NCBI GenBank assembly: GCA_902799015.1
Contig: CADBZI010000008.1
Location: 1 to 50,097, forward strand
Direction of reading: 5' to 3'
Length of the DNA: 50,097 nt
DNA from: an uncultured Lachnospiraceae bacterium
GTDB taxonomy: Bacteria > Bacillota > Clostridia > Lachnospirales > Lachnospiraceae
Shown here: positions 27,096-48,049 of the stretch, piece after piece
Position numbering within the stretch: the first letter of the stretch is position 1
Layout of the letters: each line of letters begins with the position of its first letter
Notes under the pieces: generated by a model
The model's database searches: none
What the model was told of the DNA's origin: nothing
Seen by the model: only the letters and a program-made list of their open reading frames with translations
Program-made: the position numbers and the translations under genes

Positions 27096-27419
27096 TCACA
27101 GATGCATGGCCATCTGGCCTTCGATCTGCTCCGCTGGCTTCTTTTCCCTGAGACCTTTGCATTTGCGGTAAACCTCCCCGTACATCCTGCGCTTTTTTGC
27201 GTCTTCCGGGTCAATGCGGATGGCTCCGCAGGCTTCATTGCCGCACCGCCAGTCTGTGCCGCCTCCACTGCTGACACCGAACATCGCGCATTTGTACCAG
27301 ACCCGGTTGCAATCACCGTTTACGTGAGCGATCAGGTGGTCGCAGTTTCGGCACCTGCAACCAGGCACCCGCCCGTACTCCTCATACATGAGCTGGATCT
27401 TTTCGTCTCCCGTTCTCAT
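27096..27419 (-). CDS. Cys-rich protein, 107 residues
   Basis: Leader GGAGGGCAGACACC belongs to the shared type. Cysteines lie in C-R-C-R-N-C, D-C, K-C, R-C and A-C positions, with H-x-I and W-Y-K-C. It ends in a basic helical segment. Metal-binding; role unknown. It is common next to SSB in phages of Clostridia. Confidence 0.65.
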   Translation of the reverse strand: MRTGDEKIQLMYEEYGRVPGCRCRNCDHLIAHVNGDCNRVWYKCAMFGVSSGGGTDWRCGNEACGAIRIDPEDAKKRRMYGEVYRKCKGLREKKPAEQIEGQMAMHL

Positions 27420-27437
27420 GGTGTCTGCCCTCCATGC

Positions 27438-29045: not shown

Positions 29046-29516
29046 TCATCTCTCCGCCAAAATGTACTGCGTCCGCACAAAACCCTCGCTGGTGATGCTC
29101 CATTCCGCGCTGCTGGCATATAGCGTCAGATGATCCCCCGCGTGGAGCCACTTGCGTCTGTTGCCGCCGATGGCCCGCCTGCAGGCCACCCGCCCGTCCG
29201 CATCCACCTTCGCCGCCACCGTTTCGATCTGCGGTGCGTCCGTGACGATGTACCCGCCGGCCACCCATCCCTCGCCGCTCTCGTTGCTGATGCCCGTCAC
29301 GTGAGTGTATCCGTTGCGGTTCCTGCCCGTCTGGACGGCATCCCCAAGCTCAAGATAGCCAACAACCCGGCCACCTTTGCCGGGGGATTCGCGGACGTTG
29401 ACGAAACTGTCCGGCTGGCACATAATCCAGCCTTCCTCACCCCAGGCCCGGTTGAAAAGCAGAACCAGCACCAGAAACATCCCGAAGTACAGCAGGATTT
29501 CCAAAACCCGTCTCAT
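29046..29516 (-). CDS. Membrane-anchored SH3-domain protein
   Basis: 156 residues. A signal anchor at about 5-25 (L-L-Y-F-G-M-F-L-V-L-V-L-L) is followed by a bacterial SH3 domain (V-N-V-R-E-S-P-G-K-G-G-R-V-V-G-Y-L and G-E-G-W-V-A-G-G-Y-I) and a second beta domain. The protein would sit on the outer face of the membrane, facing the wall. That is odd in the middle of the replication genes; superinfection exclusion or wall binding are possible. Leader GGAGGGCAACACA is of the shared type. Confidence 0.72.
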   Translation of the reverse strand: MRRVLEILLYFGMFLVLVLLFNRAWGEEGWIMCQPDSFVNVRESPGKGGRVVGYLELGDAVQTGRNRNGYTHVTGISNESGEGWVAGGYIVTDAPQIETVAAKVDADGRVACRRAIGGNRRKWLHAGDHLTLYASSAEWSITSEGFVRTQYILAER

Positions 29517-29529
29517 TGTGTTGCCCTCC

Positions 29530-30633
29530 TCAATGGCTCATCTTCTCTTCAATCTTGCGTCTCTTCGCTCTGATCTCCCAGATCTGCCCCTGCAGATCCG
29601 CGACCTGCTCCAGCAGTTTCGCCTCCTGATCCATCAGTCGCGCCAGCTCCCGATTCTGGTTTTCTTCCGGCTCGTCTTTCGGCCCCACAACCGGCCCCGG
29701 CATATCGGAGAGGATCGGCACTCCGTACTGCCGTAGGAAGTCGGACAGGCTGATTTCATCTTCTTCTGTCTGGGCGATGATGCTGTCCGGCTCCGGCGCG
29801 GTTTCTTCCGGCCCCTTCTCATCTAAGAACAGATCCGGGAACTTCTCCTGCCATCTGCGCAGGTTCTGCCTTGCGGCTTTCCTCGTTATCCCTTGGCTGA
29901 TCATGTAGCCCTCTGGATCGCCGGACGCGAGGACTTCCATGCATCTCTCGCGCACCGCAGCGTCCCTTTTCCTGCGATTGTTCTCCACCGCCTCTGCCGA
30001 CCACAAATGCTTGCGTTCGTTTTCCTGCGGTTTTTCTGGCCTTTCAGGGGCTTCCGCGCTTTGGTCTGTCAATTCCTCCACCTTTGTCTCAGCCGCGCCC
30101 GCATGGGGCAAATCTGCGGCCTGTGGGGCATTCGGTTCTTCCGTCCTGATCTCCATGCTGGTCACGATCACCTTTCGCAGCTTCTGCAGGATCCGTTTTT
30201 TCCCGTACTGCCGTGTGATGTCCGGGTAATGCTTCACCCAGTAGACCAACTTCTCCTGAGCGGTTGCCTCGCTGTAGCCGCGCTCATAAAGCCATCTGCG
30301 AGCGTTTCCGCTCTCGCATGCCGCCCGGAAATTATCTTTGTCGGTTTGTGTGCGCTTGCTGGCCTGGTCTGTGGTTTCAGGCGGCTTCGGTGCCGGTTGC
30401 TCCGGCCCGCTCTGCTCGTCCCACACCTTGCGGTACTGCCCCATAAGCACCAATGCACGCTGGCCAACCTGACATCCCTTAAACCCGTTGCAGCTGATGC
30501 ATGTCTTGGGGTTGCCGAGCGTTTTCGCGCAAAGGTAACCGCGAAGCTCGTCCATATCCATCTCTCCGATGGTTTTGGGGGTTCCCACTTGCGGTTCCAA
30601 AGGCCCGCGCAGGAAGGTGTATCCGTAGTCCAT
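29530..30633 (-). CDS. Large hypothetical protein with duplicated HTH-like units
   Basis: 367 residues. Two units of about 35 residues align: one near 98-140 (A-R-R-W-L-Y-E-R-G-Y-S-E-A-T-A) and one near 230-270 (G-Y-M-I-S-Q-G-I-T-R-K-A-A-R). They share L/M-x-E/S-x-G-x-[ST]-x-x-x-A and a following W-x-x-[KH]-[YF]-P-D pattern, suggestive of helix-turn-helix motifs. The linker is Pro/Glu-rich and the end is a coiled coil. C-I-S-C...C near 45 may bind zinc. Possibly a primosome or regulator protein; leader of the shared type. Confidence 0.6.
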   Translation of the reverse strand: MDYGYTFLRGPLEPQVGTPKTIGEMDMDELRGYLCAKTLGNPKTCISCNGFKGCQVGQRALVLMGQYRKVWDEQSGPEQPAPKPPETTDQASKRTQTDKDNFRAACESGNARRWLYERGYSEATAQEKLVYWVKHYPDITRQYGKKRILQKLRKVIVTSMEIRTEEPNAPQAADLPHAGAAETKVEELTDQSAEAPERPEKPQENERKHLWSAEAVENNRRKRDAAVRERCMEVLASGDPEGYMISQGITRKAARQNLRRWQEKFPDLFLDEKGPEETAPEPDSIIAQTEEDEISLSDFLRQYGVPILSDMPGPVVGPKDEPEENQNRELARLMDQEAKLLEQVADLQGQIWEIRAKRRKIEEKMSH

Positions 30634-30651
30634 GTTTGCCCTCTCCTTCGT

Positions 30652-31389: not shown

Positions 31390-31659
31390 TCATAACCAGC
31401 TTTTTCCGAAAACCCGCATGAAGGTTTCATGGCCGTGGATCTCTTCGAACCGCTCCTGACAGGTACGTTTGAGCATCTTGTCCAGCGCGGAGTTTCTGTC
31501 ATGCAGATCCATGTGGATGTCGTGCCGGAGCCATACCCAGCACCCCCACTTTTCACTGTCCTTCCTGCGGCTTCCAGCGTAGACGTGGTGGCGGTCAAGC
31601 TCCGCCACCGCGCCGCTGATAAAGCACTGCTTTTCGTCCTGCAGAATGCTCTTGCTCAT
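31390..31659 (-). CDS. HNH-like small protein of the replication block
   Basis: 89 residues. C-F-I-S-G...L-D-R-H-H-V-Y-A-G-S-R-R near the start, W-V-W-L...H-I-H-M-D-L-H and a closing R-V-F-G-K-S-W-L are the pattern of the small phage HNH/zinc proteins found near recombination genes. Two His pairs and one Cys could bind a metal. It overlaps the ParB-like gene by 4 bases. Confidence 0.65.
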   Translation of the reverse strand: MSKSILQDEKQCFISGAVAELDRHHVYAGSRRKDSEKWGCWVWLRHDIHMDLHDRNSALDKMLKRTCQERFEEIHGHETFMRVFGKSWL

Positions 31660-32486
31660 GCCAGCCCGTCTTCCTTCCGAATCGCGTCCATGATCTCAAG
31701 GCATTTCATGGGTTCCCGCAGCTGGTAATTCATCTGCCGGGTCTTGCCTTCGTGGAAGTCCATCATGGCCAGCACCAGAATCTCCGTCTGTTCCCGGATG
31801 CTCTTCTTGTCGCTGGCCGTACCCTTGTACCGTTCCTCAATCATCCTGCGGGCCACCAGGGCAGGGGATGCCTGGTATCCGTCCGATCCAACGGTGTTCC
31901 CGCTTCCGAATACTTTGAAGAAAACCTCCGCTTCGTAGCTCTTGATCAGGCCCCGCCGAAGCATCAGGTAGCAGGCCAGCACGCAGGAGGTGCGGCTTGT
32001 AAGCCGGGTGCGGTTGTTCGCACCGCAGACCCTGTAGGCCCGCTTCAGCTCCTCATAGTGGCCCTTGAGCCACTCAATGACCACGCCCTTGGTAACCGTG
32101 CTAAACCGGCCCACAATCGCGGTTCCTGCCGCCGTTTCGATCTTGGTGATGTCCCCGCATCCGCTGGCCAGCGCGATCTGGTTCGTGGTGCGCATGCTGC
32201 CGACATCGTAGATCGTCACATCATTGCCAACCCCGGTCACAATGGTCATCTTGACCGGAATGCCCGCAGCGATGACCGCCGCCAGCCTGTGCTGTCCGTT
32301 CTTGAGCTTGCCCTCTTCGTCGAACATGATGCCCTCGCCGTTGAGCTGCCACTTTCCGGCCTTCATCTCTGCCGCGTACTGGGCGACCTTGGTCTTGCTG
32401 ATCTTGCGATAGTTGTCCACGTTGCGCTTGAGGTAGTGAGCCGCCAGATCAGGGGTCACCGTCTCAACCTTCATCTGCATTGCCAT
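31656..32486 (-). CDS. ParB N-terminal-domain-like protein
   Basis: 276 residues. N-terminal half shows the ParB-type series R-N-V-D-N-Y-R-K, A-E-M-K-A-G-K-W-Q-L-N-G-E-G-I, then G-K-L-K-N-G-Q-H-R-L-A-A at about 58-70 (box II-like). C-terminal half is helical. Leader GGAGGGCAAAC of the shared type. Such solo ParB-like proteins in phages act as nucleases or regulators; the role here is unknown. Confidence 0.72.
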   Translation of the reverse strand: MAMQMKVETVTPDLAAHYLKRNVDNYRKISKTKVAQYAAEMKAGKWQLNGEGIMFDEEGKLKNGQHRLAAVIAAGIPVKMTIVTGVGNDVTIYDVGSMRTTNQIALASGCGDITKIETAAGTAIVGRFSTVTKGVVIEWLKGHYEELKRAYRVCGANNRTRLTSRTSCVLACYLMLRRGLIKSYEAEVFFKVFGSGNTVGSDGYQASPALVARRMIEERYKGTASDKKSIREQTEILVLAMMDFHEGKTRQMNYQLREPMKCLEIMDAIRKEDGLA

Positions 32487-33027
32487 GTTTGCCCTCCACT
32501 TTCTTGCCCCATTTGCGGAGCATTTCTAACTCTTCCTTCGGTGTGATGGTCGGGATGCCCAGTGCCTCCGCGTCCTGGATCAGGCTGTCGATCAGGCCGC
32601 TCATCTGCTCCGTATCGTACTCGCTGGAGCCAACGTAGCAGGTGAGGTACGTCCATCCTTCCGTGTCGCTGGCCAGCTCCACGGCCTGCCATCCGATGCC
32701 CTTGGCCTCCCACCAGTCCCTCATGCGCTTGGCCTTTTCCGTTGGCACCAGAACCGTCTCGCTGACCCCGCCGATGTCCAGAATCGCTTTGCGGTACACC
32801 TCGGTCTTCTTGAGGTGCTGCTTCGCCGCGATCTGGTCGATCAGCACCCATGCGTAAGCGTTCGCCTCCAGACTGCGGTGCTTGCGTGCCTTCTTGATCT
32901 GGATCTCGACCGCCGTGTCCTTCAGCTCGTCATAGCTTTGCCGGAAATCGGCGGTCACCGTGACGGTGATGTTCTGCGCATCACCGTCCGGTGTCAGGGA
33001 AAACCCTGTAAGCCGCCCTTCCATCAT
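32464..33027 (-). CDS. NinB/Orf-like recombination protein
   Basis: 187 residues. R-S-L-E-A-N-A-Y-A-W-V-L-I-D-Q-I-A-A-K (51-69), then V-Y-R-K-A-I, W-W-E-A-K-G-I-G-W-Q, Y-V-G-S-S-E-Y-D-T-E-Q-M and G-I-P-T-I-T-P-x-E-E-L near the end match the NinB-like proteins of Gram-positive phages. It would help strand exchange with the ERF protein. Overlaps neighbours at both ends, so the three genes are coupled. Confidence 0.7.
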   Translation of the reverse strand: MMEGRLTGFSLTPDGDAQNITVTVTADFRQSYDELKDTAVEIQIKKARKHRSLEANAYAWVLIDQIAAKQHLKKTEVYRKAILDIGGVSETVLVPTEKAKRMRDWWEAKGIGWQAVELASDTEGWTYLTCYVGSSEYDTEQMSGLIDSLIQDAEALGIPTITPKEELEMLRKWGKKVEGKHGNADEG

Positions 33028-33761
33028 CCTGCCTTCTTTCCGTACTTGTCCTGCATCTTGCTGATGAGGAGCGCGGCCTGATCCAGCGTGATGGTCGCGC
33101 TGGGCGTGTTTTCGACCTCGCCGCTGGCGACCAGCTCGGCCCGGGCCTTGCCGAAGTCAAACCCGGGGATTTCCTTCTCCAGCTTGGCCTTGGCGGCTAC
33201 CAGAAACTTGGCTCCCTCGCTCATTTCCTTCTTCGGAGCGGGAGGAGGAGTCTGGGCCGCTGGCTGCGTGGGCGGTACCGTGCTTCCGGTGCTGACCTGG
33301 GCCGCTGGCTGCCGCGTGCTGCGGGGCATGACGTCCGTGTACACATCCGCGTCCGGGTCTTTCATCTCCTCGGTGGGGATGCAGAACAGCTGGAACATAG
33401 CGTATTTCATGGCCACGCTCATGGCCTTGTTGCTTCCCTTGTCCCCGCTGTCCATGCCCTCGCCAACGACCGTCATGCTGACAGAGCTGCCATCCGGCGC
33501 GTATGCCGTGTACTTCATTGTCAGCAGGGTGTAGGTCAGCACCGTGCCGTTTTTGGTGGTGCGTTCCTCCCGCTTCTGATCCAGCACTTCCGGGCAGAAG
33601 AAGATTCCCAGCTCCGCCATCACCGGGTTCAGCGCGTTGTAAACCTGATCAATGCCCCGGTACATGAACCCCTGCTGCGCGTTTTTCTTCTCCTTGCCAA
33701 TGGCCCCGATCTTGCCGATGGCCTTGCCGATCAGCTCGTAAATCATTCCCTTGTTTTCCAT
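33024..33761 (-). CDS. erf: ERF family single-strand annealing recombinase
   Basis: 245 residues. N-terminal Q-Q-G-F-M-Y-R-G-I-D-Q-V-Y-N-A-L, then E-R-T-T-K-N-G-T, L-L-T-M-K-Y and G-E-G-M-D-S-G-D-K-G-S-N-K-A-M-S-V-A-M-K-Y-A are the ERF hallmarks. The C-terminal part is a Pro/Gln linker plus a small helical domain. It anneals single-stranded DNA in recombination-dependent replication, with SSB and the Gam-like protein. Confidence 0.93.
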   Translation of the reverse strand: MENKGMIYELIGKAIGKIGAIGKEKKNAQQGFMYRGIDQVYNALNPVMAELGIFFCPEVLDQKREERTTKNGTVLTYTLLTMKYTAYAPDGSSVSMTVVGEGMDSGDKGSNKAMSVAMKYAMFQLFCIPTEEMKDPDADVYTDVMPRSTRQPAAQVSTGSTVPPTQPAAQTPPPAPKKEMSEGAKFLVAAKAKLEKEIPGFDFGKARAELVASGEVENTPSATITLDQAALLISKMQDKYGKKAG

Positions 33762-33777
33762 AGTGTTCGCCCTCCTC

Positions 33778-34302
33778 TTACTTTAATGTGACCGTGAATT
33801 TATCTTCCCGTGGCGTGACCGTGATTCCCGGCACAATCTCGCCGTCTTCGGTGACCATTCTCAGCCCGTCCGGGCTGGCCTTGAGCTCCTTTTTCAGGTT
33901 GGCCCAGTCGCTGCTTTCCTTGATCTTGATCAGCTCCGGCCGATTGGCTTTCAGCCATGGAACCAGCTCTTCATCCTTGGTGTCGTACTTCGGCTCCTGA
34001 TGCTTGAGCACCAGCTTGCCGCTCGGAAGGTCGTAGGTCTTCTGCGTCTTGGTGACTTTCGCGGGCACAATGTCGAAGTAGGCCCGCAGGTTGGCCTCGG
34101 CCCATGCCACCTTGCGGTCGCGCTTCTCCTTGGCCTTTTCGACCATATGCGCGTACCACGATTCCATCTTCTGGTATTCAGCATCGGCCTGACGGATCAT
34201 GGTGAGCATGTACTCGGCATCCATATCGTCCAGCATGGGGATTTCCTGCCCCTCCAGCTGATCCAACTCCTCATCCGGCTCGTAAGCCCTGAGTTCACTC
34301 AT
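33778..34302 (-). CDS. gam: Gam-like host-nuclease inhibitor
   Basis: 174 residues from the ATG at 34302 (AGGAGG upstream); an upstream GTG at 34353 is less likely. Coiled-coil-rich N-terminus, W-Y-A-H-M-V-E-K-A-K, then the Mu Gam family tail pattern K-Y-D-T-K-D-E-E-L-V-P-W-L-K and I-T-V-T-P-R-E-D-K-F-T-V. It binds DNA ends and blocks RecBCD/AddAB-type nucleases. The start of the recombination genes. Confidence 0.85.
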   Translation of the reverse strand: MSELRAYEPDEELDQLEGQEIPMLDDMDAEYMLTMIRQADAEYQKMESWYAHMVEKAKEKRDRKVAWAEANLRAYFDIVPAKVTKTQKTYDLPSGKLVLKHQEPKYDTKDEELVPWLKANRPELIKIKESSDWANLKKELKASPDGLRMVTEDGEIVPGITVTPREDKFTVTLK

Positions 34303-34318
34303 TTTTTGTCTCCTCCTA

Positions 34319-34347
34319 TTGTGCTTCGCGCCTTTTTGTGATAGAAT
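34319..34347 (+). promoter_or_regulatory. Candidate + strand promoter with extended -10
   Basis: TTGTGC (34319-34324), a 17-bp spacer and TAGAAT (34342-34347) preceded by TG, an extended -10. The -35 matches only in its first three bases. Transcription would begin near 34354 and run against the direction of the neighbouring early genes. Confidence 0.45.
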
Positions 34348-34353
34348 AGTCAC

Positions 34354-34424
34354 GAAGCAGATCGCTGTGTTTGCCCTCAGCGTGTTTCATGCATCCGGGG
34401 TTTTCCCACCCGGGTGCTTTTTTT
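34354..34424 (+). ncRNA. Candidate antisense-type small RNA with anti-SD loop
   Basis: About 70 nt between a candidate promoter and a terminator, with no ribosome binding site. A hairpin CGCT (34363-34366)/AGCG (34379-34382) presents the loop GTGTTTGCCCTC, which is exactly complementary to GAGGGCAAACAC. That sequence, or most of it, overlaps the SDs of at least five leftward genes (starting 30633, 32486, 34894, 42488 and 42697) and nearly so at three more (27419, 29516, 33761). It would therefore be able to bind several early messages at their ribosome binding sites. Alternative: the complement is merely a decayed SD on the - strand. Confidence 0.45.
34392..34424 (+). terminator. Rho-independent terminator on the + strand
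   Basis: CATCCGGG (34392-34399) pairs with CCCGGGTG (34409-34416), with two G-U-type pairs, and is followed by CTTTTTTT. The T run is on the + strand only. No + strand gene ends here, which argues for a short non-coding transcript. Confidence 0.75.
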
Positions 34425-34440
34425 ATGCTTCGGGCTGGTT

Positions 34441-34587
34441 TCATCTGTATCCGGTAAAACCGAACACGTCCGGCGTTTCCCTGCGCCGCATGGTTCTCCA
34501 CGCCCTGATCCGGTCAGCCAGCGTGAGCCGCATCGTCAACCGCCTGCTGGTCATGGGACAGAAAGTGTAGCGTCCTGTGCGTGCCAT
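34441..34587 (-). CDS. Small basic protein, 48 residues
   Basis: From the second of two close ATGs (34587), with AAAGGAGGG at the right distance, to TGA at 34441. Arg-rich (M-T-S-R-R-L-T-M-R-L-T, T-M-R-R-R-E-T), so possibly nucleic-acid binding. No family recognised. It lies between the small RNA locus and the 96-residue gene in the early operon. Confidence 0.55.
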   Translation of the reverse strand: MARTGRYTFCPMTSRRLTMRLTLADRIRAWRTMRRRETPDVFGFTGYR

Positions 34588-34603
34588 GTTCATCCCTCCT
34601 TTC

Positions 34604-34894
34604 TTAGTAGTCCCGTTCCATGGCCACGATCTGACGGTTTACCTCGCCCGTGATCCTGTCGATCTCTTCGGCGAGGGACGCGATGCGGTTCTCTGCCCAT
34701 GTGTCTTCCGTCCACTCCGTCGCCTTTTCCAGCTTGCTGCTGGCCTGATACAGCAGGCTTACAGCCTCCCGCATCTTGCTGATGGCCGGCTGCCAGTTGT
34801 GGTACCTGGAGTCGTCGGCGTTCAGCTCTTCCCAAAGCCGCGCCTGCCAGTTATCGACCATCTTGTCTACATCCTGCCCGTAAGCGTTCACCAT
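34604..34894 (-). CDS. Early helical protein, 96 residues
   Basis: Start ATG at 34894 with the shared leader GGAGGGCAAACAC. Mostly helical, with W-Q-A-R-L-W-E-E-L and regularly placed Trp, Leu and Ala (S-L-L-Y-Q-A-S-S-K-L-E-K-A-T), as in a short coiled coil. Its leader contains the longest match (13 bases) to the candidate small RNA. Function unknown; early operon. Confidence 0.65.
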   Translation of the reverse strand: MVNAYGQDVDKMVDNWQARLWEELNADDSRYHNWQPAISKMREAVSLLYQASSKLEKATEWTEDTWAENRIASLAEEIDRITGEVNRQIVAMERDY

Positions 34895-34914
34895 GTGTTT
34901 GCCCTCCTTCGTGG

Positions 34915-35136
34915 TTACCTTTGCCTTAATCTCCGCATCGCCGCCCGGATCTGCGCCGTTGGCGTTGCATCCCGTTCCCGTTCCCATGCTTCCACCGCGC
35001 TGAGCGGTACCAGCATCGGGCGAGTGTCCAACCGCCCGCGCATCTCCTTCATCCGCTTCGCCGCTGTCTGGCGGCTTTTCAGATGGTGCCGAGCCATCAG
35101 CTGGGGGATATCAAGGAACTGCTCGTCCAGTTTCAC
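34915..35136 (-). CDS. Excisionase-like DNA-binding protein
   Basis: 73 residues from a GTG at 35136 with GGAGGTG 7 bases upstream; the frame overlaps the cro-like gene by 26 bases. F-L-D-I-P-Q-L-M-A-R-H-H-L-K-S-R-Q-T-A-A-K-R-M-K is a winged-helix/HTH_17-type motif as in Xis and Tec proteins. The C-terminus is Arg-rich. It is immediately after cro, where an excisionase or second regulator is expected. Confidence 0.65.
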   Translation of the reverse strand: MKLDEQFLDIPQLMARHHLKSRQTAAKRMKEMRGRLDTRPMLVPLSAVEAWERERDATPTAQIRAAMRRLRQR

Positions 35137-35326
35137 GGCTTCCACCTCCCTGCAGCAGATCGTCCACCGTACACTGCAGCGCGGCAGCGATGGCCTGCAT
35201 GGTGTCCACCCGTGGGTGCTTCGTGCGGCCACACTCGATGTAAGAAATCACGCCCTGCGGGATTCCCGTCCGTCTGGAAAGCTCCGCCTGTGATATGCCG
35301 CGCTTCTTGCGGATCTCCTTCAGCAT
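35111..35326 (-). CDS. Cro-like HTH regulator
   Basis: 71 residues from the ATG at 35326 (AGGAGG 8 bases upstream). XRE helix-turn-helix: G-I-S-Q-A-E-L-S-R-R-T-G-I-P-Q-G-V-I-S-Y, followed by a T-K-H-P-R-V-D-T-M-Q-A-I-A-A-A-L segment. It is transcribed divergently from the repressor from a consensus promoter and should shift the switch towards lytic growth. Confidence 0.88.
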   Translation of the reverse strand: MLKEIRKKRGISQAELSRRTGIPQGVISYIECGRTKHPRVDTMQAIAAALQCTVDDLLQGGGSRETGRAVP

Positions 35327-35339
35327 CCTGTTCACCTCC

Positions 35340-35440
35340 TGTTCGATACTTCGATTAAAGTATAACGAAACTTCGAACGTTTGTCAATAGAAATTTCGAA
35401 CGGGTTATGCTAATATCTAATTAGAAATTTCGATATACAG
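35340..35440. promoter_or_regulatory. Lysis-lysogeny control region with operator half-sites
   Basis: The - strand cro promoter is TTGACA (35382-35387), a 17-bp spacer, TATACT (35359-35364). The region has at least five TTCGA/TTCGT-type half-sites (about 35342, 35351, 35366, 35372, 35394 and 35430), several in inverted pairs, typical of CI-like operators. A + strand promoter for the repressor is less certain (TTGTCA at 35382, TATGCT near 35406). The inverted pair TTCGA-CAAA-TCGAA near 42781 may be a further operator. Confidence 0.75.
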
Positions 35441-35457: not shown

Positions 35458-36060
35458 ATGACCGTTGGTGAAAGAATCAAAGGACTTATGAAGGAAAAGG
35501 GGATCAGCCAGAACCAGCTGGCCCGGTCTGCACAAATCTCGCAGTCCGGGTTAAGCAGTATTATCAACGGAGCATCCAGCCCCAAGGAAAGCACGATGAA
35601 GGCCATCGCAGGAGCCCTGGACTGCACCGTGGCTGACCTGATGGGCGAGGTCGCGATGCCCGCCAACATCCTGCAGATGATCAGCGGAGCCGTTCCTCTG
35701 GTTGGAGAGATCGCCTGCGGAACTCCGATCCTCGCGCAGGAGAACATCGAGGGCCGTGTGGATCTGCCGGAAGGAGTCCGGGCCGACTTCGCGCTTCGGT
35801 GCAAGGGAACATCCATGGAGCCGCTTTTCATGGACGGAGATCTTGTCCTGATCCGACAGCAGGAAGACGCGGATGATGGAAAGGTCGCCGCTGTGCTGAT
35901 CGGCAACGAGGCCACCTTGAAGCGAATCCACCGAATCCCTGACGGCCTGATGCTGCTGCCGGAAAACGCTGCGGAGTTTGCCCCGCAGATCTATCAGGGG
36001 GAAGAGGCATCCTCCATTCGTATTCTTGGTGTCGCGGTTGGCTATGTGCGTATGATCTGA
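35458..36060 (+). CDS. LexA/CI-like phage repressor (HTH plus S24 peptidase)
   Basis: 200 residues, SD GGGAGGTGA. HTH at about 16-39 (G-I-S-Q-N-Q-L-A-R-S-A-Q-I-S-Q). The S24 self-cleavage domain has the scissile pair Cys87-Gly88 (I-A-C-G-T-P-I), catalytic Ser119 (K-G-T-S-M-E-P) and Lys155 (A-T-L-K-R). It would keep the prophage silent and be inactivated by RecA after DNA damage, so the phage should be SOS-inducible. Confidence 0.93.
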   Translation: MTVGERIKGLMKEKGISQNQLARSAQISQSGLSSIINGASSPKESTMKAIAGALDCTVADLMGEVAMPANILQMISGAVPLVGEIACGTPILAQENIEGRVDLPEGVRADFALRCKGTSMEPLFMDGDLVLIRQQEDADDGKVAAVLIGNEATLKRIHRIPDGLMLLPENAAEFAPQIYQGEEASSIRILGVAVGYVRMI

Positions 36061-38851: not shown

Positions 38852-40480
38852 TTAGCCTCCGATCTTCAGCAGGTTGCCGTCTGACAGCGGAGCCAAGAAA
38901 TAATTCGCATGCTGCACAACTTTGTCATATCTGTCAGCGGTTCCCATAAACGATTTCGCCACCTTCTGCTCCTCTGCCGTCATATCCTTGTATTTCTTTT
39001 TGCCGAAACTCGGCGGCAGCCAGTTCTTTCCTTTGGCTGCGAAGATATTGAACCGGGCCAGCAGGTTCATGTCCTTAAACTCAATGTGCGCCGTACCTTT
39101 TTTGTAGAAGGTAAGATAGAAGTATTTACTGTCCAGCTTTTTGGTATCTCCAGTCTTTTCTGCCTCCAGCAGCACCTCCATCAGGTTTTTCTCAGGTGTC
39201 CGTCCACCGTCCAGGTAGTTGAATACCTTCTCAATGTCCTGCAGTTTTTCCCGGACATTGTAGGCATGGAATTCCGGCTCAATCCTGCTGCCCCAGTCCG
39301 TGTACCCTCTAAGCGGCAGGATCACCTTTTTGTTGACAGCGAATGCGTCATTGGTTCGCCAGCCATCAAAGTAGTGCCGGTTCTGTGCATTTTCATCCCA
39401 GTGATATTTCCGCGTCCAGTCATCAAACAGGGCCATGATGGTGGCCTCTACGCCCTGCGTAACCTGGGAGTTCATCTGGATCATAATCTCCTTGATGTTG
39501 TAAAAGGAGAATTCATAATCCTCCAGTTCTTTGACCCGATTATATAGCTGCGTCCGCAGGTTGGTGGTCAGCTGCTCAACAAACTGCGGGGATGCAAACA
39601 GGGTTGACCAGTATTTGTGCCGACATTCCCGGATCCACCTATCCTCATGCGCAGCCTCTGTGCCAATCGCCAGCGACATGGACGAGCTGAGCACGGAGGA
39701 AACGGCCCTGTATTCCTGGATCAGTCGCAGACCGCTTTCCACCTCATAATTATACCGGTCAATGATCGCTTCAACAAAGTCCGCCTTGCTCAGGGCTGCA
39801 TACTCACTTTCCTGCATGCTGACGTATTTGTGCGCCGGCCGGAGCTTTTCAAGGATCAGGCTATCCTCCAGATCGACCGCAGGGGCTTTGTATCGGATCA
39901 TGGCTATTTCTACATCCGTCTTCCGCTCAGCTTTCAGGAATTCGCCCTTGTGGTAAGTGATCTCCGCATTGTTGTCCGTCAGAATTCGGAACAGCTGATA
40001 CCGCTCGTTATATGCCGAATGGTTGCGGATGGTTTCCGCATTGCACAGGGCAACCAGCGTCCCATTCGCATCCAGCAGGGAAATAGCTTTCAGGATATGC
40101 CGCGCCGCGTCCTCAAATGGCGGGTTCATGATAATCAGGCTATACCGTTTCATGGTATGGTAGGTCAGAAAATCATCATGCACAACCCTGAATTTTTTCT
40201 CCTTCAGGATGGCCCGCAGATTCGGATCCACCTCAATGCAGTCAATGTCGGCCCGCTGCTCCTCCGCGTAATACCTGCTGGAACAACGGTAGATCCTCCA
40301 CTTCTCATTGATGGCCTCAGCGAGGTTTCCCTTGCCTGCGCTTGGCTCCAGGATCGTGCTGACGTAATCCCATTTGATGCCCTCCAGCATTTTGGATGCC
40401 ATGCTGGCCGGGGTAGGGTAAAACCCGGAAGCAGCTCTGCGCTGCTCCGGGATCGTTGCGATATTTGTCATCTCCCTCAT
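38852..40480 (-). CDS. Adenine-type DNA methyltransferase with DUF4942-like C-terminal domain
   Basis: 542 residues, SD AAGGAGG. Motif I E-P-S-A-G-K-G-N (45-52), an acidic I-E-V-D (82-85) and N-P-P-F (119-122) mark a gamma/alpha-class N6-adenine methyltransferase-like domain. The last about 300 residues (from about 235) fit the DUF4942 domain found fused to such enzymes in phages and plasmids. It could methylate phage DNA as defence against restriction. Second methyltransferase in this genome. Confidence 0.85.
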   Translation of the reverse strand: MREMTNIATIPEQRRAASGFYPTPASMASKMLEGIKWDYVSTILEPSAGKGNLAEAINEKWRIYRCSSRYYAEEQRADIDCIEVDPNLRAILKEKKFRVVHDDFLTYHTMKRYSLIIMNPPFEDAARHILKAISLLDANGTLVALCNAETIRNHSAYNERYQLFRILTDNNAEITYHKGEFLKAERKTDVEIAMIRYKAPAVDLEDSLILEKLRPAHKYVSMQESEYAALSKADFVEAIIDRYNYEVESGLRLIQEYRAVSSVLSSSMSLAIGTEAAHEDRWIRECRHKYWSTLFASPQFVEQLTTNLRTQLYNRVKELEDYEFSFYNIKEIMIQMNSQVTQGVEATIMALFDDWTRKYHWDENAQNRHYFDGWRTNDAFAVNKKVILPLRGYTDWGSRIEPEFHAYNVREKLQDIEKVFNYLDGGRTPEKNLMEVLLEAEKTGDTKKLDSKYFYLTFYKKGTAHIEFKDMNLLARFNIFAAKGKNWLPPSFGKKKYKDMTAEEQKVAKSFMGTADRYDKVVQHANYFLAPLSDGNLLKIGG

Positions 40481-42293: not shown

Positions 42294-42488
42294 TTATTCG
42301 TCAAGATTCCTCAAGTCCTCAAACTCCGCTGTCCATTCTGCGGTGCTGAATCGCTTAGGAAGCTGTTCAGCGTATTTCTGCGGATCGGTTGCTGTGAACT
42401 TGAAATTCTCAATCCGAGTTACGCTCCCGTCAGGCATGATCTGTTTCAGCGTAGCTATAAAGTGGCTCTTGCCGCTCTTCGTTTTCAT
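42294..42488 (-). CDS. Hypothetical protein, 64 residues
   Basis: ATG at 42488 with the shared leader GAGGGCAAACGCA. Beta-rich (F-I-A-T-L-K, F-K-F-T-A-T) then helical D-P-Q-K-Y-A-E-Q-L. Second gene behind the promoter at 42744-42772. Unknown function. Confidence 0.6.
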   Translation of the reverse strand: MKTKSGKSHFIATLKQIMPDGSVTRIENFKFTATDPQKYAEQLPKRFSTAEWTAEFEDLRNLDE

Positions 42489-42499
42489 TGCGTTTGCCC

Positions 42500-42697
42500 T
42501 CACTTTCTGAAAGTCGAAAGTCCGAAGCTGGCCGCGATGGCCTTGCGGATTGTCAGGTCGTTGGTCAGGTAGCTTCCTCCGGCGATCCGCTTCTCGTTTC
42601 CGTCTTCGTCCGCTGCATAGGTTCCGCGCTTGATGAAGTCGCTCCAGACCGTGTAGGTCTTGCCAGCCACCGTTGTCGTCTTAATCGTACCCTTCAT
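42500..42697 (-). CDS. First gene of the right early operon, 65 residues
   Basis: ATG at 42697 with the full shared leader GGAGGGCAAACACG. Mostly beta strands (T-I-K-T-T-T-V-A-G-K-T-Y-T-V-W) and a helical tail. It is 47 bases from a perfect promoter, so should be expressed early and strongly. No family recognised; its leader has a 12-base match to the candidate small RNA. Confidence 0.65.
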   Translation of the reverse strand: MKGTIKTTTVAGKTYTVWSDFIKRGTYAADEDGNEKRIAGGSYLTNDLTIRKAIAASFGLSTFRK

Positions 42698-42737
42698 CGT
42701 GTTTGCCCTCCTTCTTTCTGCCGGTTCCCTTCCGGCT

Positions 42738-42772
42738 GATTGTATTATACAATCTTATAATTGTATTGTCAA
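42738..42772 (-). promoter_or_regulatory. Consensus promoter with palindromic -10 region
   Basis: On the - strand: TTGACA (42772-42767), 17 bp, TATAAT (42749-42744), both perfect. GATTGTAT-T-ATACAATC, a perfect 17-base palindrome, spans the -10 element (42738-42754) and could be an operator. The sequence closely resembles the promoter at 48050-48078. A TTCGA-CAAA-TCGAA inverted pair lies just upstream (about 42781), similar to the repressor operators. Confidence 0.9.
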
Positions 42773-42824
42773 CAGGAAAATTCGACAAATCGAACGTTTT
42801 TTTGCGCATTTATCGAAAAACTTA

Positions 42825-42867
42825 CAACAAGGTTGCAACAAGGTTGCAACGAGGTTGCACGCGTGCA
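42825..42867. repeat. 11-bp tandem repeats and adjoining palindrome
   Basis: CAACAAGGTTG at 42825-42835 and 42836-42846 and CAACGAGGTTG at 42847-42857 follow one another without gap. GTTGCAAC palindromes form at the joints, and the array continues into the perfect palindrome TGCACGCGTGCA (42856-42867). A period of 11 bp places each unit on the same side of DNA. It lies between a terminator and an early promoter, so an operator or an origin-type iteron array is plausible. Confidence 0.8.
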
Positions 42868-42893
42868 AAAAAAGCTCCGGTTTTCACCGGAGC
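42867..42893 (-). terminator. Rho-independent terminator
   Basis: GCTCCGG-TGAAAA-CCGGAGC hairpin followed by TTTTTTT on the - strand. It ends the block 43672-42884; the stop codon of the last gene (42884) lies inside the hairpin. Confidence 0.92.
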
Positions 42894-43225
42894 CGATCCA
42901 GAACCGCATGATACAGATTCGGATGGATCATGCTGATGGTATCCATCATCTCGTCCATCAGCGGCCAGACTTCCTTCTGCGGCCTTCCATCGATAATCCT
43001 GGCAAACTCCGAATCGCTCGGATTATCGACAAGGCTTACCTCAGGGGCAGGCGCGTAGGAATATCCGGCAGTAGGAGAGGGGAGCTGTACAGCTTCCTTG
43101 TCTTCCCCGTACAGCTCCCGTTTAATCGTGTAAAATGCGGCCAGTTTGATCGCGGTGTTTGCGTTTGGGTTGCGCTGGCCTATGCACTCAGCTATGGCCT
43201 CCTGCAGATCCTTCTCTGTGATCAC
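42884..43225 (-). CDS. Hypothetical protein, 113 residues
   Basis: Start taken as GTG at 43225 with GGAGG eight bases upstream. Helical: D-L-Q-E-A-I-A-E-C-I, N-A-N-T-A-I-K-L-A-A-F-Y, and a C-terminal D-E-M-M-D-T-I-S-M-I-H-P. No domain recognised. It is the last gene before a strong terminator. Confidence 0.6.
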   Translation of the reverse strand: MITEKDLQEAIAECIGQRNPNANTAIKLAAFYTIKRELYGEDKEAVQLPSPTAGYSYAPAPEVSLVDNPSDSEFARIIDGRPQKEVWPLMDEMMDTISMIHPNLYHAVLDRLR

Positions 43226-47510: not shown

Positions 47511-47981
47511 TTATCCAATGATCAAATCTTCGTCTGCACTTTCAAGGTACCTGCGCAGGAATTCCTCTTTTGTGCAAGGCGCGAATTTGTTGTTTATGGC
47601 CTCCCTTGTATCATCATCCATGGAAGTCACGATCACAGGCCAAGCCGCACCTGCAACCGCCTCTTCCACGCTCACAAAATGCGCCCCGTTATCAATGCTG
47701 ATCCGCGCCATGTGATTGGGTTCCTCCACTGGATCCATCTCCACGTAAACCTCGCACTCAGCGGAAGCGTCAGGATCCAGAAATTCCTCCTGTCCGTCGT
47801 AGAGGAAATCAGCTTTGACTCCTTTGGACAGGATCGCATTTTTAAGCGTCAAGTATCCATAATCCTCGCTGGCCTCTGCCGGCACCATGCACTCCGCATA
47901 TACGCTGCCATCCACGGAGATCATGTAATTTACGCCGCCGCTGAAATGCCGTCCTTCTCCTGCTTCAAACCTGAATATCAT
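47511..47981 (-). CDS. Hypothetical protein, 156 residues
   Basis: ATG at 47981 (AAGGAGG eight bases upstream). Acidic, alpha/beta: F-E-A-G-E-G-R-H-F-S-G-G-V-N-Y, Y-G-Y-L-T-L-K-N-A-I-L-S-K-G, then T-K-E-E-F-L-R-R-Y-L. No domain recognised; acidic proteins in early phage operons often act on host enzymes, but this is speculative. An alternative start at 48005 has a leader like GACGGGCAAGCACG. Confidence 0.6.
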   Translation of the reverse strand: MIFRFEAGEGRHFSGGVNYMISVDGSVYAECMVPAEASEDYGYLTLKNAILSKGVKADFLYDGQEEFLDPDASAECEVYVEMDPVEEPNHMARISIDNGAHFVSVEEAVAGAAWPVIVTSMDDDTREAINNKFAPCTKEEFLRRYLESADEDLIIG

Positions 47982-48049
47982 TTTCCCGTCCTCCTTAATC
48001 TCCATCGTGCTTGCCCGTCGTTAAGTGCCTTTTGCATTGGCACTGCTAT

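What the first reader, a model, noticed from the sequence alone, without database searches (positions are those of the whole stretch)
34319..34424. Candidate phage small RNA with an anti-Shine-Dalgarno loop directed at a family of early genes
A possible + strand RNA of about 70 nt runs from an extended -10 promoter (34342-34347) to a clear terminator (34392-34424) opposite the early genes. Its hairpin has the stem CGCT/AGCG and exposes a loop GTGTTTGCCCTC. This loop is the exact complement of GAGGGCAAACAC, which forms the SD and leader of several leftward genes: 13 bases match before 34894, 12 before 42697, 11 before 32486 and 30633, 10 before 42488; 33761, 27419 and 29516 differ at one position. 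It would thus be a single regulator of many early genes, perhaps to hold them silent in the lysogen. The alternative is that this is just a decayed copy of the same leader.
Basis: partly seen in the sequence, partly recalled or inferred. Interest (0 to 1): 0.75.

Follow-up and report, generated by a model that had tools for sequence, protein, structure and literature searches.

The report
Phage RNA matching its own genes
On the strand opposite its early genes this prophage appears to encode a 70-letter RNA whose exposed loop fits the ribosome-binding sites of several of its own early genes, and in related phages loop and sites change together, which points to a real, apparently undescribed RNA switch over phage genes.

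Summary
In detail: extended -10 promoter, hairpin exposing GUGUUUGCCCUC, strong terminator (34319-34424 +). In a duplex scan of both strands the seven best sites, the RNA's own complement aside, all lie directly before start codons. Four of five viral loci found by the Gam-like protein carry the unit at the same place. In 12 members the stem covaries (0.770; shuffles 0.230) around an identical loop, which was the search pattern for 7. Upstream of ERF in other phages, units with different loops match those phages' own, different leaders: over 11 unit types not chosen for a match the cognate sum is 114, permuted mean 86, 11 of 200,000 as high; 5 of the 11 types carry the signal, 6 show none. I infer a phage-encoded multi-target antisense RNA that blocks translation initiation. 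Expression, repression and its role (lysogeny, superinfection immunity or timing) are not shown. Nearest precedent: P1/P7 c4 RNA. No Rfam match; no description in the paper searches made.

The parts
34319..34347 (+). promoter of the small RNA: -35 TTGTGC (34319-34324), 17-nt spacer, extended -10 TGA-TAGAAT (34339-34347)
   Evidence: of the 27 rows listed (window included) 26 have the extended -10 and 20 have TTG at -35 with a 16-18 nt spacer, among them all 12 with the window's loop; a -10 was part of the selection for most rows, so its conservation is partly by construction
34354..34424 (+). predicted small RNA, about 71 nt, antisense within the leftward early operon; its start is inferred from the -10
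   Evidence: relatives
34354..34388 (+). hairpin 1 with the anti-leader loop GUGUUUGCCCUC (loop 34367-34378)
   Evidence: loop identical in 12 of 12 (search pattern for 7), 5-bp stem paired in 86.7% of cells, covariation 0.770 against 0.230
34391..34424 (+). intrinsic terminator: 9-bp stem, 9-nt loop, seven T
34894..34906 (-). target leader, 13-nt match, before gene 34604-34894 (unknown, 96 aa)
   Evidence: -22.5 kcal/mol
42699..42710 (-). target leader, 12-nt match, before gene 42500-42697 (unknown, 65 aa), which follows a consensus promoter at 42772-42744
42490..42501 (-). target leader, 10-nt match plus G.U, before gene 42294-42488 (unknown)
33763..33774 (-). target leader with one G.U, before ERF gene 33024-33761
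32485..32496 (-). target leader, 11-nt match running into the start codon, before gene 31656-32486 (phrog_5931; weak ParB-like match)
30632..30643 (-). target leader, 11-nt match running into the start codon, before gene 29530-30633 (unknown, 367 aa)
27421..27432 (-). target leader with one G.U, before gene 27096-27419 (unknown)
29517..29528 (-). weaker possible target leader (one base missing), before gene 29046-29516 (bacterial SH3 domain)
   Evidence: -17.8
33778..34302 (-). Mu Gam-like gene next to the unit on the other strand; its own SD is not the shared leader
35111..35335 (-). Cro-like HTH gene upstream in the leftward operon; does not carry the shared leader
35458..36060 (+). CI-like repressor (HTH plus peptidase S24)
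35342..35434 (.). cluster of TTCGA/TCGAA sites around the promoter-like site at 35387-35359 (-); operator role inferred
42781..42817 (.). second cluster of TTCGA/TCGAA sites, at the promoter 42772-42744 (-); none at the small-RNA promoter

Best explanation
The locus encodes a trans-acting antisense small RNA of the phage. Its first hairpin presents a single-stranded loop that pairs with a shared leader overlapping the SD, and in some types the start codon, of about seven phage early genes, and so blocks 30S binding. The second hairpin is the terminator. Shown by sequence and comparison: the pairing potential, the conserved structure and the joint change of loop and leaders. Inferred: expression, repression and timing. 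Likely use: the RNA's promoter lacks the operator-like sites seen at both early promoters, so it may stay on in the lysogen, silence leaky early transcripts and act on incoming phages with the same leaders. On induction the leftward early transcript, which contains a perfect complement of the RNA, would titrate it and release its targets.
For: Seven best duplex sites in the window lie before start codons. The leader is concentrated in the phage and one-stranded in 11 viral records of the window's loop type: 85 against 1, reversed control 5 in all (the 85 include the RNA's own copy in 10 records). Unit at the same place in 4 of 5 loci found by the Gam-like protein. Stem covariation around a fixed loop. 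Of 31 candidate units upstream of ERF tested, 24 match a leader of their own phage over 10-18 nt, where medians in other loci are 7-8. 11 unit types not chosen for a match: cognate sum 114, permuted mean 86, 11 of 200,000 as high. The ERF leader is GAGGGCAAACAC in L011, L013, L015 and L114, but GAGGGCTAACGA in L014, whose loop is changed accordingly. Relatives of the 31656-32486 protein keep a related leader in 5 of 5 distinct contigs, at 34-76% protein identity (L129 reads GAGGGCAAATGC).
Against: No transcript data. Of 31 candidates 7 have no leader match of 10 nt or more (L025 on a 5.3-kb contig; L030, L050, L053, L066, L072, L078), so promoter plus terminator does not define the family; 6 of the 11 types carry no signal. 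L095 (Gam relative) and L012 (one leader) lack the unit. None of 25 regions from cellular genomes of the same family and order (24 with ERF, one with Gam) gave a hit. In 11 loci only one or two gene starts match by 9 nt or more in the DNA held (L016, L018, L019, L021, L022, L024, L027, L028, L073, L086, L280). The match of L077 (10 nt) is reached in 21 of 84 other loci. Leader substitutions are not clearly biased to G.U-compatible ones (31 of 81). Folding does not consistently favour the RNA strand.
Confidence: 0.83

Rival explanations
1. The hairpin is a decayed or duplicated copy of a gene leader, with no function as an RNA.
For: On the - strand it reads as the shared leader followed by a short frame without a start codon. 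L012 and L095 do without it.
Against: Found at the same place in many phages with covarying stem, antisense promoter and terminator; loops follow each phage's own leaders.
Confidence: 0.04
2. The functional element is the hairpin in the leftward mRNA, for instance a decoy or a site for a phage protein that binds all these leaders.
For: The sense strand folds about as well in 4 of the 5 group members compared on both strands; the window is the exception (-22.0 against -30.2).
Against: Extended -10 and T-run are on the antisense strand; the matched stretch differs freely between types and reaches the start codon in L058, L260 and L280.
Confidence: 0.05
3. It is a real antisense RNA, but it acts mainly in cis on the leftward operon (interference or cleavage near gam, like lambda OOP on cII), and the leader matches are secondary.
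For: It lies fully antisense to the operon, next to gam.
Against: Cis pairing needs no resemblance to distant leaders, yet loop and distant leaders change together.
Confidence: 0.08

Closest known systems
c4 RNA of phages P1 and P7
   Same: Phage antisense RNA, complementary sequences likely in loops, aimed at a ribosome-binding region; important for the heteroimmunity between P1 and P7 (PMC12197685, passages read).
   Different: c4 targets ant mRNA; here one RNA fits about seven genes in two operons and has its own promoter and terminator antisense to the operon; no Rfam match.
lambda OOP RNA
   Same: Short (77 nt) antisense RNA of a phage (PMC12197685, passages read).
   Different: OOP is cis-antisense to cII; here the loop fits several distant leaders.
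P22 sar RNA
   Same: 68/69-nt phage antisense RNA that blocks translation of ant (PMC12197685, passages read).
   Different: One target in the passages read; no leader shared across genes.
P4 CI RNA (recalled, no call)
   Same: RNA-based prophage immunity.
   Different: Recalled to act through transcription termination, not by masking start sites of many genes.
C-rich-loop sRNAs of Firmicutes such as RsaE (recalled, no call)
   Same: Exposed loop aimed at SD sequences of several mRNAs.
   Different: Host-encoded with host targets; here the targets are the phage's own genes and the leader is concentrated in the phage.

Membership tests
any described RNA family, c4 included (Rfam 15) | match to a covariance model | tested here: not met
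   No match up to E 5 for window 34250-34500; none at gathering scores in 10 loci with relatives.
c4-like antisense immunity RNA | loop complementary to the ribosome-binding region of a phage gene | tested here: met
c4-like antisense immunity RNA | confers immunity, specificity set by loop and leader | not testable with these tools
   Only indirect: loops and leaders change together, and the same loop occurs with different repressors.
lambda OOP-like cis-antisense RNA | extended antisense pairing to the coding gene it regulates | tested here: not met
   The RNA lies between gam and the 50-codon frame, not over a gene start that carries the leader; its trans matches are 10-13 nt. A cis effect on the operon is not excluded.
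trans-acting multi-target bacterial sRNA | own promoter and terminator, seed loop, several targets at translation start | tested here: met
   By sequence only.
trans-acting multi-target bacterial sRNA | expressed and active in trans | not testable with these tools
   No expression data at hand.

The most novel reading that the evidence does not exclude
A family of phage RNAs gives each lineage a shared leader 'code' on its early genes and a matching loop RNA that reads it: an RNA immunity of the prophage that is independent of the CI repressor, and that is switched off on induction because the early transcript carries a perfect complement of the RNA. Codes would diversify between lineages as immunity groups do, apart from the protein repressor: with the window's loop, L091, L092 and L094 have a CI relative 56-76% identical, while L093, L114 and L015 show only a 61-69-residue HTH match; L020, L026 and L028, with other loops, have CI relatives 45-51% identical.
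Probability: 0.33. Interest if true: 0.92.

Novelty: new variant of a known kind. Interest (0 to 1): 0.84.

Why it matters
The phage antisense RNAs I know of act on one or a few genes, or on the host. Here one 71-nt RNA is predicted to control genes spread over two early operons through a leader repeated across the phage, and loop and leaders change together between phage lineages. That would make RNA-level immunity and early-gene control in these phages directly testable, and it gives a rule (loop equals complement of the phage's own leaders) for finding such RNAs from sequence alone.

Tried and rejected
Decayed leader copy: disfavoured by conservation and covariation. Sense-strand hairpin: less likely; G.U asymmetry of the stems was looked at as a sign of strand, but folding does not decide it. 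G.U-compatible drift in leaders: true of the three window leaders with one substitution before the start codon, but only 31 of 81 substitutions at 85 leader sites of the group, so not used. Host-wide leader: not supported. The ten-type matrix (137 against 87, 0 of 200,000) used types picked because they had a match, so it is biased; the test quoted is that, with 11 types taken from all 31 candidates. Cellular genomes: a DNA search in 19 genomes of the genus found the window itself and a 22-nt partial match; the Gam-like protein hit 2 of 299 family genomes, one being its own; all 24 ERF places outside the own genome plus that Gam place were fetched (several cut by contig ends) and gave no scanner hit. 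Pattern hits without hairpin and terminator were set aside as chance: 11 of 21, 8 of 9. The pattern was written wrongly and corrected; two of its five hits (L109, L111) were not resolved. Rows dropped: L052 (body too short) and L077:4205 (second place in L077). Weak scanner hits in L061, L067, L083, L089 and at a second place in L108 (longest 9-10 nt) are taken as background; L298 (12 nt) is uncertain. L029 looks like a member with a poor -10, but the scanner does not report it and it is not counted. L030 looked by eye like a further type; a search of its record gave one exact and three two-mismatch matches, its own copy possibly among them; not settled. Papers: of PMC12197685 the outline, passages and one section were seen; all others are search listings. 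No structure prediction was made.

Full report
The thing itself. Between the Gam-like gene (33778-34302, -) and a 50-codon frame (34441-34593, -) lies a unit on the + strand: TTGTGC, 17 nt, extended -10 TGA-TAGAAT, then from about 34354 a hairpin with the loop GUGUUUGCCCUC and a 9-bp terminator hairpin with seven T. The 71-nt RNA folds at -30.2 kcal/mol, z -4.55 against shuffles.

Setting. The window lies on contig C8 of a 2.6-Mb, 168-contig genome and holds a temperate phage: CI-like repressor with S24 peptidase and integrase on +; leftward a Cro-like gene, an unknown gene, the 50-codon frame, [the RNA, antisense], Gam-like, ERF, NinB-like, a weakly ParB-like protein, replication initiation, Holliday junction resolvase and SSB. 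TTCGA/TCGAA sites cluster beside CI (35342-35434) and at a second leftward promoter (42781-42817); none lies at the RNA's promoter. That these are CI operators is inference.

Targets. With the 12-nt loop hybridised against both strands of the window, and the RNA's own complement set aside, the seven best sites (-22.5 to -20.2) all lie directly before start codons: 34894, 42697, 42488, 27419, 33761 (ERF), 30633 and 32486. The eighth (+ strand, -19.5) does not; the ninth (48005, -19.4) does. GAGGGCAAAC occurs 6 times in the 50-kb window and 4 times in the other 2.59 Mb. Cro and Gam lack it. NinB overlaps the end of ERF by four bases and could be coupled to it (coordinates; inference).

Conservation. 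Five viral loci encode a relative of the Gam-like protein. Four carry, just upstream and antisense, an extended -10, a hairpin with the same 12-nt loop but a different stem, and a terminator. The fifth, L095 (50% identical), holds about 110 bp before its gene and shows no such unit there. A pattern of loop plus -10 gave 21 stretches in viral contigs, of which 10 show the unit (four of them on the contigs just named, two on ERF contigs L011 and L013), and 9 in genome contigs, of which 1 does (L136, uncultured Clostridia bacterium). In the 12 distinct members the loop is identical (search pattern for 7), while the 5-bp stem, free in every search, is paired in 86.7% of cells, with covariation 0.770 against 0.230 in shuffles and at most 0.224 in slid versions.

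Loop and leaders change together. One search asked for hairpin loops whose complement recurs in the same locus; one search asked only for a terminator with a -10 before it, antisense, within 1.9 kb upstream of ERF. Other phages have units with other loops: L014, UUGUUAGCCCUU with leaders GGAGGGCUAACA-AUG (6 sites); L058, UAUUUUGGUAUGUCCUC with GGAGGACAUACCAAAAUG; L021, CCAUUGCUUUGC with GCAAAGCAAUGG (2 sites); L016-L020, L022-L024 and L027, AUUGCCCUUGCA or near it with GCAAGGGCAAUG; L028, 18 nt; L073 and L086, UAGCCCUUGCAC with GUGCAAGGGCUAUG; and, found later, L260 (17 nt) and L280 (13 nt). One search examined 85 loci (80 kept of 209 ERF relatives, the window, four Gam loci); 32 had a unit. 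Of 31 bodies tested, 24 match a leader of their own phage by 10-18 nt, where medians in other loci are 7-8; leaders there are taken loosely (frames of 25 codons or more with an SD-like motif). Grouped by sequence, the 31 make 11 types; with one phage each, the cognate matches sum to 114, the permuted mean is 86, and 11 of 200,000 permutations reach it. Five types (window, L014, L028, L021, L058) match their own phage best (11-18 nt, no other phage equal); six (L030, L050, L053, L066, L072, L078) show nothing and may be unrelated units. An earlier matrix gave 137 against 87 but used types chosen for having a match. In one orthologous gene, ERF, the leader is GAGGGCAAACAC in L011, L013, L015 and L114 and GAGGGCTAACGA in L014, with the loop changed to fit.

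Extent. In 11 viral records of the window's loop type, GAGGGCAAAC lies 85 times on one strand and once on the other. Of loci L011-L094, the 8 with two or more copies of GAGGGC[AT]AAC on a strand all have the unit (L011 through L125). The scanner gave no hit in 25 regions of cellular genomes (24 ERF, one Gam) from the same family and order. L012 has one leader and no unit.

How it works. Pairing covers the SD and in several types reaches the start codon, where 30S binds, so the likely effect is a block of translation initiation; this is inferred from position. The RNA is read from inside the operon it faces, so the early transcript holds its perfect complement and could titrate it once early transcription is strong. 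In the lysogen, with early promoters shut and no operator-like site at the RNA's promoter, the RNA would dominate. Repressor and loop seem to assort separately: with the window's loop, CI relatives are 56-76% identical in L091, L092 and L094; in L093, L114 and L015 only 61-69 residues of HTH match; in L122 and L136 the only hit falls on the Cro-like gene; in the other members of the call none was found, some of those loci being short. L020, L026 and L028, with other loops, have CI relatives 45-51% identical to the window's. This fits an RNA immunity independent of CI, but plain early-gene timing as well.

Known or not. Rfam has no match. The review PMC12197685 (outline, passages and one section seen) describes OOP, sar, aQ, c4, VpdS, PreS and others; nothing in what was read describes a leader repeated across a phage's genes and read by one RNA. 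Searches of the paper library listed no description of this family; most subscription papers are not held. c4 of P1/P7 is nearest in principle.

Change on checking. The first version counted L095 as uninformative and leaned on the matrix. With L095 counted as a miss and the less biased test, confidence was lowered from 0.85 to 0.83, the bold reading from 0.35 to 0.33 and interest from 0.85 to 0.84.

Noticed in passing
window 34441-34593 (-): A 50-codon frame beside the RNA has relatives in L091 (71%), L092 (60%), L026 (50%) and L136 (41%) and no PHROG match.
   Followed up: partly
window 42720-42895: Second leftward promoter with a perfect consensus (TTGACA-17-TATAAT), operator-like TTCGA/TCGAA sites, repeated AAGGTTGCAAC units and a terminator-like hairpin.
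   Followed up: partly
window 38852-40480 (-): 542-aa protein with a DNA methyltransferase-like N-terminal part (PHROGs) and a DUF4942 C-terminal domain.
   Followed up: no
L260:226-268 and L280:6408-6433: Two more antisense units of the same plan with unrelated loops, each matching a leader of its own phage (17 and 13 nt, into the start codon).
   Followed up: partly
L114, L122, L129, L136, terminator hairpins: The terminator loops share GUAGCCCC although the stems differ; purpose unknown.
   Followed up: no
window 47511-48005 (-): Unknown gene with a leader CGGGCAAGCACGATG that binds the loop at -19.4, ninth in the duplex list after the RNA's own complement; a possible further target.
   Followed up: no
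L030, L050, L053, L066, L072, L078, upstream of ERF: Promoter-terminator units at about the same place whose bodies match no leader in the DNA held; other targets, another function or chance.
   Followed up: partly
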